A DNA stretch of 40,210 nucleotides from an uncultured Alphaproteobacteria bacterium (GTDB taxonomy: Bacteria; Pseudomonadota; Alphaproteobacteria; RF32; CAG-239). The notes beneath the pieces were generated by a model, which saw only the letters and a program-made list of their open reading frames with translations, searched no databases and was not told the origin of the DNA. The stretch covers positions 1-40,210 of the forward strand of contig CALXUQ010000012.1 of NCBI GenBank assembly GCA_944391725.1, in the 5' to 3' direction. The translations under genes and the position numbers were made by a program. This document shows, piece by piece, positions 1,932 to 5,248 of the stretch. Position 1 is the first letter of the stretch; every line of letters begins with the position of its first letter.

Positions 1932-1988
1932 TTAGTTATCTCTCGTTTATAATAGCGTCATCCCTCAAGTACGTTAACATTATTTAGA

Positions 1989-2027
1989 GTCATCCCTCGT
2001 TTTTCGCAGAAAAACGTCAAGGGATCT
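1989..2027 (+). repeat. REP-like palindrome copy 1
   Basis: A 39-nt hairpin. Arm ATCCCT (1992-1997) pairs with AGGGAT (2020-2025), and CGTTTTTC (1998-2005) pairs with GAAAAACG (2009-2016) around a 3-nt loop. It begins GTCA and ends TCAAGGGATCT, the same frame as the copies at 2120 and 2200. The layout resembles the GTCATCC...GGATCT intergenic palindromes common in alphaproteobacteria, with a different stem sequence. Confidence 0.7.
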
Positions 2028-2240: not shown

Positions 2241-2283
2241 TGTAAAAAAGAACTCCGCAGAGCGCTTTCGCCACTCTGCGGAG
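2241..2283 (-). terminator. Intrinsic terminator of the 2333-5248 gene
   Basis: A ten-base-pair stem, CTCCGCAGAG (2253-2262) with CTCTGCGGAG (2274-2283). On the minus strand it is followed by TTCTTTTTT. Confidence 0.85.
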
Positions 2284-2332: not shown

Positions 2333-5248
2333 TTATTTAACCTCAAACCCGAGGACACACCTGACGGACTCATTGCTGACCTTAACGTAGTCGTACACAT
2401 TGCCGCCACCGGCGTACACTACCCACGCGTCGTTTTTGGAAGACTCGGACGAAGACCAATACACATCATTCAGTATAGCCGTACCTCCGGCCGCACTCAA
2501 TCCACTGTTTACGGCCGCTTTGTTTGTCGATACAGTCGCATATAGCTCCCCTTCCGCCGGTAAGTACCACTGCCCCTTAGATGTTCCTGTGGTCGTATAG
2601 TTATAGCAATATCCTGCCGCATAACTTGTGGAGCTACTTCCTAATACACTTACTATCTTAGATGTATTACTCTTACCACTAAAGTCATTCTTCGCCGTGC
2701 TAAATGAGGTAATATTTGTCAATCCTGATATATCCGTGCCATAGCCACCCCATTGCCTTGACGTATTCACCAGATTTATCGCCAATCTCGTACTGCCGTT
2801 CATATAAGAGATGACCCCGATTGGCGTCTTGCCGCTCACCTTGCACGAACTGCAAGTGTGGTCGGAATAAAGAATGTTACCTACAGAACAGGTATTGTCA
2901 CAACTTTTTTCACAAGCACCATCTTTCCACTCATAACCAGCTGCACATTGGCAAGATTGATACAATCCACCGCAAGAAACCCCCACTCCACCGGTAATAT
3001 GCGTATCATCCCCCACGGTACAGGTATATAAATAGTCATTTCCGCACAGCGTCCCCGTCCCTTCTCCATTATCTTCAAACCCTAGGACACACCTGACGTA
3101 ATAGCGGTTGCTGTACTTAAAGTAGTCGTTCGCGTAGCCGTCATTGGCGCCCACGCCCCACGCGTAGCGGCTAGAGGCCTCGGACGAAGACCAATGATAT
3201 CCACTTACAGATGTACCTCCGGCCGCACTCAATCCACTGTTTACGGCTGAATAGTTAGTATATATCGAGGCATATAGCTCCCCTGCCGCTGGTAAGTACC
3301 ACTGCCCCTTAGATGTCCCTGCAGTCGTAAAATTATAGCAATATCCTGCCGCATAACTAGATGTATAACCTAAAGCACTAACTATTATAGATGTATTACT
3401 CTTACCACTAAAGTCATTCTTCGCCGTGCTACTTGAGGTAATATTCGTCAATCCCGATATATCTGTACCAGAGCCACCCCATGCTAATTGTGTACTAACC
3501 AGATTTATCGCTAATCTCGTACTACCGCTGGCATAAGAGATAACCCCGATTGGCGTCTTGCCGCTCACATTACAAGAACTGCAGGTATAATCTGAATATA
3601 AAATATTTCCGACGGAGCATGTCTCATCACACGCCACGCACGCACCATCATACCACACATACCCACTCGCACATTGGCAAGATTGATACAATCCGCCGCA
3701 AGCCGTACCCACTCCGCCGGTAATATGCGTATCATCCCCCACGGTACAAGTGTATAAATAGTCATTTCCGCACAGCGTCCCCGTCCCATTTCCATTATCC
3801 TCAAAAGCTAGGGCACACCTGACGGACTCGTAGCCGTTCTTATAGTTCCAGGGCACACCGCCGCTCGCGACCACGCTCCACGCGCCGTTGCTCGAATACT
3901 CGGACGAAGACCAATGATATCCATCCTTTATAGCCGTACCTCCGGCCGCCTTTATACCATTGTTTACGGCTGAATAGTTAGTATATATCGGGGCATATAG
4001 CTCTCCATGTGCAGGGAGATACCAATCTCCCTTAGATGTCCCTGCAGTCGTAAAATTATAGCAATATCCTGCCGCATAACTAGATGTATCACCTAAAGCA
4101 CTAACTATTATAGATGTATTACTCTTACCGCTAAAATCTGTTGTATGTGGCGATGAACTATAATTCGTCAATCCCGATATATCTGTACGATAGCCACCCC
4201 ATTCCGTTGACGTACTTACCAGATTTATCGCTAATCTCGTACTACCGCTGGCATAAGAGATGACCCCGATAGGTGTCTTACCATCTTCTTTGGTCTTGGT
4301 ACAGGTCATATCGGAGTTCAAGACATACCCCACATCACAAGAAACTTTGACACAAGTATCATTTTCCCATACATACCCACTGCCACATTCGCCTTCTTTG
4401 ACCTTATATTTCATTCCGTCACAAGAATCACAGCTATCGCCCTTGACGTAACCCTCTGGAATTTGGCTCTCCAAATAAGGATAATCATCACACGGCGCGC
4501 AACATTCTTTGTACCACTTTTCATCGCCACGCCAACAAACTTCCGTACCGGTCTGCCCGCCTTTGTCACATTGAATAAACCCTTGCGCCGCACAATCGTT
4601 GAGTTCTTTTTGATAGCGGGTCACATTGCCACAGGCCAAACAGCTACCCCCGGTCTGATAACCTTGGGGGATTTCATCGGCTTCATACGGATAATCTGCA
4701 CACAAATTACAGCATTTTCCATACAAATCCGAATACGAACACAGTTCCGTATCATCAAGTGTCCAACCATCCTGACAATCGCTCACATAATCATTATCTT
4801 CCTCAAGGCAAGCTTTTTCCAAATCTTCCTTACACTGAAAATACAGCACCTCACCATTAGGGCACTGCGCATCGGCATATTGCGGCACTTGGCAATCATC
4901 CGGCACAATCGTATAGCCGTTATCCAAACACCACTGCCGCAAATTACATTTGATATAAGAAGAATTTTCGGGACAGCGTTCAATATTAGAATTAGGGTGA
5001 CAAATTTTGGTAGAAGTACTTTCATACCCGGCCGCTAAACATTCATCAGCTCCGCTTGGCTCAAACTGCATCGGCTTATCCTGACAGTCTGGCAAAAAAC
5101 AAATCGCCGCCTGCGCCACCACGGAAAACAACACCAGTCCGCCCACCAAACTCAAACCCGACACCACCGCCATTGCGCCTCGATAAAAGCGCAATTTTTT
5201 TAAATTTTGGCCGCAACAAAACAGGCCGGATTTTCTCTTCTCCCGCAT
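2333..5248 (-). CDS. Large secreted Cys-rich protein with three DUF1566/Lcl-type modules and hypervariable ends
   Basis: 971 residues. A hydrophobic segment at about 26-47 ending AQA-A fits an export signal with an unusually long basic n-region; AAAGG 8 nt upstream supports the first Met. Residues about 50-320 are Cys-rich with repeated DYPYE..IP.GY units. Three modules follow, starting near 323, 565 and 810. Each has GKTPIGVIS, WGG..TDISGLTN, AAGYCYN, WYLPA.GELY, WSSSE, AW and VRC motifs typical of DUF1566/Lcl_C (C-type-lectin/FGE-like) domains; Cys-rich linkers (YLYTCTVGDD) separate them. The modules are nearly identical in DNA except for a block between WSSSE and VRC (residues 451-475, 691-717, 936-961), which is hypervariable. 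A surface-displayed ligand-binding role is inferred. No partner gene is obvious, and the gene has its own terminator. Confidence 0.8.
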   Translation of the reverse strand: MREKRKSGLFCCGQNLKKLRFYRGAMAVVSGLSLVGGLVLFSVVAQAAICFLPDCQDKPMQFEPSGADECLAAGYESTSTKICHPNSNIERCPENSSYIKCNLRQWCLDNGYTIVPDDCQVPQYADAQCPNGEVLYFQCKEDLEKACLEEDNDYVSDCQDGWTLDDTELCSYSDLYGKCCNLCADYPYEADEIPQGYQTGGSCLACGNVTRYQKELNDCAAQGFIQCDKGGQTGTEVCWRGDEKWYKECCAPCDDYPYLESQIPEGYVKGDSCDSCDGMKYKVKEGECGSGYVWENDTCVKVSCDVGYVLNSDMTCTKTKEDGKTPIGVISYASGSTRLAINLVSTSTEWGGYRTDISGLTNYSSSPHTTDFSGKSNTSIIVSALGDTSSYAAGYCYNFTTAGTSKGDWYLPAHGELYAPIYTNYSAVNNGIKAAGGTAIKDGYHWSSSEYSSNGAWSVVASGGVPWNYKNGYESVRCALAFEDNGNGTGTLCGNDYLYTCTVGDDTHITGGVGTACGGLYQSCQCASGYVWYDGACVACDETCSVGNILYSDYTCSSCNVSGKTPIGVISYASGSTRLAINLVSTQLAWGGSGTDISGLTNITSSSTAKNDFSGKSNTSIIVSALGYTSSYAAGYCYNFTTAGTSKGQWYLPAAGELYASIYTNYSAVNSGLSAAGGTSVSGYHWSSSEASSRYAWGVGANDGYANDYFKYSNRYYVRCVLGFEDNGEGTGTLCGNDYLYTCTVGDDTHITGGVGVSCGGLYQSCQCAAGYEWKDGACEKSCDNTCSVGNILYSDHTCSSCKVSGKTPIGVISYMNGSTRLAINLVNTSRQWGGYGTDISGLTNITSFSTAKNDFSGKSNTSKIVSVLGSSSTSYAAGYCYNYTTTGTSKGQWYLPAEGELYATVSTNKAAVNSGLSAAGGTAILNDVYWSSSESSKNDAWVVYAGGGNVYDYVKVSNESVRCVLGFEVK
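2366..2443 (-). repeat. Hypervariable segment of module 3
   Basis: Twenty-six codons between the conserved WSSSE and VRC. The segment keeps only scaffold residues (AW, V, A, G, DY, K, SN) in common with the others. Candidate DGR-type variable region. Confidence 0.55.
3098..3178 (-). repeat. Hypervariable segment of module 2
   Basis: Twenty-seven codons in the same place as in module 3. Over the first 24 aligned codons it differs from module 3 at 23 bases: 9 at codon position 1, 8 at position 2 and 6 at position 3. The flanking DNA is almost identical. Confidence 0.55.
3824..3898 (-). repeat. Hypervariable segment of module 1
   Basis: Twenty-five codons in the same place. It is visibly GC-richer than the surrounding gene and rich in codons ending in C. 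One or two codons shorter than in the other modules, so the three variable segments also differ in length. Confidence 0.55.

What the first reader, a model, noticed from the sequence alone, without database searches (positions are those of the whole stretch)
2333..5248. Secreted protein with three modules that look like diversity-generating retroelement targets
Module DNA is nearly identical outside a block of 75-81 nt per module, and that block is hypervariable. Between modules 2 and 3, 23 bases differ over 24 aligned codons, 17 of them at codon positions 1 or 2, with many codons ending in C. The block sits between WSSSE...AW and VRC in a DUF1566/C-type-lectin-like fold, the place where DGR variable regions lie, and it ends at a conserved GC-rich stretch (GTCAGGTGTG) like an initiation site. 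No reverse transcriptase, avd gene or template repeat is in the window, so the proposal needs a remote DGR acting in trans.
Basis: partly seen in the sequence, partly recalled or inferred. Interest (0 to 1): 0.75.

Follow-up and report, generated by a model that had tools for sequence, protein, structure and literature searches.

The report
Triple-module hypervariable surface protein, retroelement-diversified
A secreted gut-bacterium protein carries three lectin-like modules whose binding faces bear the marks of a known mutation machine (a diversity-generating retroelement); a close relative still has that machine, but this genome assembly has no trace of it.

Summary
Gene 2333-5248(-) is intact (971 aa) with three Lcl_C/DUF1566 modules of C-type-lectin fold. 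Each has a 100-106 nt variable tract between invariant ends, TGGTCTTCGTCCGAG and GTCAGGTGTG. Four more such tracts lie elsewhere in the genome. One (C29) is in a gene with otherwise unrelated flanks, yet 24/24 end bases match; copying from a shared template is the easy explanation. A congener (G004) has the whole DGR: Avd, three tandem template repeats with the same ends, an RT with the IGNLSSQ motif, and remote targets. There one template-target pair differs at 18 bases, 16 of them template adenines. In six related cis-cassettes 85-100% of changes fall on template A, in DUF1566 targets.

The window's own 1.57-Mb MAG has no RT, Avd or template, and the site where congeners carry the cassette (MPG-recA) is contiguous and empty. 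So these are DGR targets by origin, but the DGR here is either recently lost (favoured) or unassembled. Ongoing diversification is not shown. Three variable regions in one ORF have one published precedent that I found, and targets left behind without an RT have another. Ordinary in kind, unusual in combination.

The parts
2333..5248 (-). DGR-type target gene, 971 aa: N-terminal signal-like and Cys-rich part, then three Lcl_C/DUF1566 modules
   Evidence: ORF; Pfam PF07603 three stretches
3803..4282 (-). module 1 (aa 323-482)
   Evidence: module limits
3814..3913 (-). variable tract 1, 100 nt, TGGTCTTCGTCCGAG to GTCAGGTGTG, internal, no strong hairpin just downstream
3077..3562 (-). module 2 (aa 563-724)
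   Evidence: module limits
3088..3193 (-). variable tract 2, 106 nt, internal, no strong hairpin just downstream
2345..2833 (-). module 3 (aa 806-968), modelled as a C-type-lectin-like fold
2356..2458 (-). variable tract 3, 103 nt, C-terminal
2356..2366 (-). CGTCAGGTGTG, initiation-site-like end of tract 3 (also 3088-3098 and 3814-3824); seven copies in the genome, all at such tracts
2253..2283 (-). GC-rich hairpin after the stop codon; homing hairpin or transcription terminator

Best explanation
The three blocks are variable regions of a diversity-generating retroelement (DGR). Mechanism as in known DGRs: an RT with Avd copies a template-repeat RNA, misreads template adenines, and the cDNA replaces the matching tract of a target gene next to the GTCAGGTGTG end. 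In this lineage one or more cassettes served several remote lectin-fold targets in trans: seven tracts in five genes of this genome, three of them in this one polypeptide, giving a secreted protein with three differently randomised binding faces. Shown: shared tract ends in unrelated genes; templates with the same ends, RT and Avd in a congener; adenine-specific change in relatives. Inferred: that the same process made the tracts in this genome. The cassette is absent from this assembly; I favour recent loss over non-assembly (roughly 60:40).
For: Seven tracts with identical ends in the own genome. C29 tract: 24/24 end bases shared with window modules while 60 nt upstream and 40 nt downstream match only 28-41%. 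Third positions of the tract ends differ 5 of 105 times against about a third in the rest of the modules. Congener G004: Avd (NF033474 E 1.2e-14, bAvd 2.3e-17), three tandem repeats with the same ends, RT with IGNLSSQ and YVDD; TR2 to its C2 target 16 of 18 substitutions at A. Related cassettes with DUF1566 targets: 14/14, 21/21, 20/20, 23/24, 17/19, 11/13 substitutions at template A. C-type-lectin-like fold with pLDDT 92. Loss: MPG-recA closed in this genome, while G004 has MPG-cassette and G001 RT-recA.
Against: No RT, Avd or template in the MAG, so adenine specificity cannot be tested on the own template. Own tracts do not fit G004's templates (58 of 139 substitutions at A). About a quarter of the differences between modules are at third positions, which a single AAC-rich template would not give; several templates are needed. 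No read data.
Confidence: 0.88

Rival explanations
1. Same DGR origin, but the cassette is still in the organism at another locus or in part of the population, missed by assembly or binning; diversification goes on in trans.
For: Own contigs break next to targets (C6, C20, C78) and the smallest contig in the bin is 3658 bases, so a short repeat-bounded cassette contig could be dropped. Relatives' RT contigs are often only 3-8 kb. Tract ends are undecayed.
Against: The site used in G001 and G004 is contiguous and empty here. The MAG is rated 100% complete. No RT fragment, Avd or template anywhere in it.
Confidence: 0.35
2. Only the C-terminal tract was a direct DGR target; tracts 1 and 2 were carried inward by module duplication or recombination between paralogues.
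For: Strong hairpins follow the C-terminal tracts in own, G004 and cis relatives but not tracts 1 and 2; the BPP-1 DGR needs a hairpin just after the VR (PMC3240598), and VRs are almost always near the 3' end (PMC7517822). Internal modules of G004's 1344-aa target lack such tracts.
Against: The hairpins here lie tens of bases after the tract with varied loops and may be terminators. The variable codons of the three tracts are as different from each other as from other genes' tracts, while their ends are identical. Three VRs in one ORF are on record (PMC3521204).
Confidence: 0.3
3. No retroelement: tandem lectin modules under diversifying selection, with ordinary recombination among paralogues keeping the tract ends alike.
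For: The gene family is large in the genus (5-30 relatives of the N-terminal part per genome), and no RT is in this MAG.
Against: The C29 gene shares only the tract ends, to the base, including silent positions; the same ends bound A-rich templates beside an RT and Avd in a congener; conserved silent positions bound the hypervariable block in exactly the TR/VR extent.
Confidence: 0.06

Closest known systems
DGR cassette of congener G004 (public MAG BRZ_CI__bin121, contig CALXTR010000022.1), not described in a paper that I found
   Same: Same tract ends, same Lcl_C fold targets, remote targets in trans
   Different: Has Avd, three TRs and RT; its multi-module 1344-aa target carries only a C-terminal tract; its templates are not the source of the window's tracts
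DUF1566-domain DGR variable proteins of human microbiomes (PMC4159848; PMC6642488)
   Same: Same Pfam domain, the commonest annotated target class there; the same structural neighbour, 4EPS
   Different: The cases described have the VR at the C-terminus, near an RT; here three tracts in one protein and no RT in the genome
Treponema denticola TvpA-type targets in isolates without core DGR (PMC4891356)
   Same: VR-bearing targets in genomes with no RT and no TR, explained there as leftovers of DGR loss
   Different: FGE-sulfatase-type lectin fold and one VR per gene in the cases read; here Lcl_C fold and three tracts
Marichromatium purpuratum 984 ORF with three VRs in three tandem FGE-sulfatase paralogues (PMC3521204)
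   Same: Three VRs in one ORF of tandem lectin-fold modules
   Different: Different domain family, part of a DGR with its RT; the authors could not tell whether the ORF was an artefact
BPP-1 Mtd DGR (PMC3240598)
   Same: Mechanism: VR with a downstream initiation end, adenine mutagenesis
   Different: Hairpin immediately after VR; one VR; RT in cis

Membership tests
DGR variable region / target gene | Hypervariable tract with conserved 5' and 3' (IMH-like) ends, shared with a template repeat | tested here: met
   Ends identical in seven own tracts and in the templates of congener G004; template of this genome itself not found
DGR variable region / target gene | Differences from the own template concentrated at template adenines | tested here: inconclusive
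   No own template. Indirect signs fit (A-containing columns 2 of 42 constant); shown directly only in relatives
DGR variable region / target gene | C-type-lectin-type or Ig-type fold with the tract at the ligand face | tested here: met
   Model pLDDT 92.3; 4EPS Z 16.3, Legionella Lcl 8Q4E Z 12.4, C-type lectins Z 7-8; exposure of the face not computed
DGR variable region / target gene | Hairpin or cruciform just downstream of the VR (BPP-1 type) | tested here: inconclusive
   GC hairpin after tract 3 and other C-terminal tracts, none strong after tracts 1 and 2; distance and loops unlike BPP-1, terminator possible
Complete DGR in this genome | RT of the DGR clade in the genome | tested here: not met
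   No RVT_1 match and no match to the congener's RT at E<=10 in the MAG; the same searches ring in congeners
Complete DGR in this genome | Template repeat and Avd | tested here: not met
   Inferred-template search finds only the tracts and a decayed one; no bAvd match
DGR cassette of congener G004 | RT with (I/V/L)GxxxSQ motif, Avd, TR, VR with adenine-specific change | tested here: met
   IGNLSSQ at residue 226, YVDD; Avd; TR2 to VR 16 of 18 at A; motif from PMC3521204

The most novel reading that the evidence does not exclude
One polypeptide carries three separately retro-diversified lectin faces, two of them internal and without the usual downstream hairpin, supplied in trans by a multi-template DGR that comes and goes within the genus while its targets stay behind as a frozen binding repertoire.
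Probability: 0.3. Interest if true: 0.65.

Novelty: new member of a known kind. Interest (0 to 1): 0.48.

Why it matters
DGR surveys start from the RT and mostly look beside it; Roux et al. say that remote targets are missed in fragmented assemblies (PMC8144416). Here a target family is recognisable by its tract ends alone, in a genome without any RT, with three tracts in one protein. The pair of this genome and G004 makes two questions testable: how long targets outlive their DGR, and whether internal variable regions are true retrohoming sites.

Tried and rejected
RT, Avd and template in the own MAG, by family model, congener RT and inferred template: nothing. Phage- or plasmid-borne DGR: no viral contig with the 22-nt own tract end, no close RT relative in viral contigs; best phage RT 48% identical, best plasmid RT 38%. 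Own tracts as products of G004's templates: rejected (58 of 139 substitutions at A). 'Hypervariable columns contain A' was dropped as evidence because the flanks show the same (49 of 52). Rfam on the MPG-recA gap: one hit far below its cut-off. The 28-nt match between the end of G004's cassette and the recA terminator is a generic hairpin and is not relied on. TvpA and Mtd were not among the structure rows shown; this says nothing either way.

Full report
The observation. The ORF at 2333-5248(-) is intact and Pfam finds three Lcl_C (DUF1566) stretches in it. In each module a 100-106 nt tract runs from TGGTCTTCGTCCGAG to GTCAGGTGTG. 'Nearly identical outside the block' is too strong. Window modules differ at 18% of sites before the block, half at third positions, against 37% in the block, three quarters at positions 1-2. 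The true contrast is a reversed codon-position pattern plus exactly conserved tract ends.

The rest of the genome. The window is a whole contig (C12) of a 1.57-Mb, 78-contig MAG. CGTCAGGTGTG occurs seven times, always at such a tract: three in the window and one each on C6, C20, C29 and C78. The C29 gene is next to the rpoB-like ORF, and its flanks match those of the window modules no better than chance (28-32% upstream, 38-41% downstream), yet the 24 end bases are identical. Third positions in the ends differ 5 times in 105 comparisons, against about a third in the rest of the modules. A shared template that overwrites the tract explains this; module duplication alone does not. C23 holds an 1884-aa multi-module relative whose tract ends have decayed.

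The machine in a relative. Congener G004 has a complete cassette: Avd, three tandem template-like repeats about 246 nt apart, and an RT with IGNLSSQ and YVDD. Its templates and its five remote targets carry the same ends as the window's tracts. TR2 against the C2 target: 16 of 18 substitutions at template A. In more distant relatives the cassette sits beside a DUF1566 target, and template-to-target changes are nearly all at A: 14/14, 21/21, 20/20, 23/24, 17/19, 11/13; A went to G 59, T 48 and C 15 times in the equal-length pairs. Two cassettes with several templates give a weaker bias (about 65-75%), as expected when the true template is not the one aligned (inference). So DUF1566 modules of this family are DGR targets in this group of gut Alphaproteobacteria.

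The fold. AlphaFold2 of module 3 with twelve relatives gives pLDDT 92.3. The best matches are 4EPS (Z 16.3, 177 residues) and Legionella Lcl 8Q4E (Z 12.4), then many C-type lectins at Z 7-8. The block lies between WSSSE and VRC and covers strands and loops of the C-terminal half. One lysine in the block (AAG) is constant in all seven own tracts and kept in every relative's pair checked, although its adenines are in the template; selection for the fold is the simplest reason.

Where is the DGR of this genome? RT, Avd and template searches of the MAG are empty while the RT and Avd searches ring in congeners. In G004 the cassette follows MPG (a 3-methyladenine DNA glycosylase-like gene); in G001 the RT abuts recA; in this genome MPG and recA are neighbours on one contig with about 200 nt between. 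This favours loss at that site. A copy elsewhere, unassembled, stays possible: own contigs break near targets, and the smallest contig in the bin is 3658 bases. The tract ends have not decayed, so loss, if real, is recent. The own tracts do not fit G004's templates (58 of 139 substitutions at A) and fall into four lengths, so this lineage probably had several templates of its own (inference).

Internal tracts. Published VRs lie almost always near the 3' end (PMC7517822). Here two of three are internal. I found one clear precedent, three VRs in one ORF of Marichromatium purpuratum (PMC3521204); PMC6642488 also counts multi-VR ORFs, with an atypical Pseudomonas example. Strong hairpins follow the C-terminal tracts but not the two internal ones. 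BPP-1 needs such a hairpin (PMC3240598), but here distance and loops vary and a terminator is an equal reading. Whether the internal tracts are direct targets is open.

Verdict. DGR target by origin: well supported. A DGR acting now in this cell: not shown. Each part has a precedent: DUF1566 targets (PMC4159848, PMC6642488), targets left without RT (PMC4891356), several VRs in one ORF (PMC3521204). The combination is unusual, but it is a member of a known kind.

Noticed in passing
L033:8271-8382 and L032:2853-2964 (both G004:C22): The first template-like repeat of the G004 cassette is identical over exactly 112 nt to a target tract about 20 kb away, with unrelated flanks, and has lost many of the adenines of its neighbour TR2. 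It looks like a target tract copied back into the template array.
   Followed up: partly
L058, L059, L062, L033: Cassettes of this group often carry two or three template repeats in tandem between Avd and RT, with different lengths; one G004 target (C20) looks like a mosaic of TR3 (5') and TR2 (3').
   Followed up: partly
own tracts and pairs in L059-L069: The adenines of one AAG lysine codon in the template are kept in every tract checked, while the neighbouring AAY codons vary freely.
   Followed up: partly
L038:3054-3253 (G000:C39, between recA and MPG): The place of the missing cassette holds a run of short perfect palindromes (CCCCGAGTAAACTCGGGG, CCACGC...GCGTGG), perhaps a REP-like or insertion-sequence remnant.
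   Followed up: no
L031 (G000:C23), ORF from 917, 1884 aa: A larger multi-module relative whose tract ends have decayed (GTTAGATGTT, GTTAAGTGTG): probably an older, retired target.
   Followed up: no
window 1959-1999 and L027:1-41: A 41-nt intergenic repeat after this gene (CATCCCTCAAGTACGTTAACATTATTTAGAGTCATCCCTCG) is identical at the broken start of contig C6, also after a target gene.
   Followed up: no
genus-wide: Relatives of the Cys-rich N-terminal part occur 5-30 times per genome in all seven genomes of the genus, also where no RT is found: a large expansion of secreted proteins.
   Followed up: no
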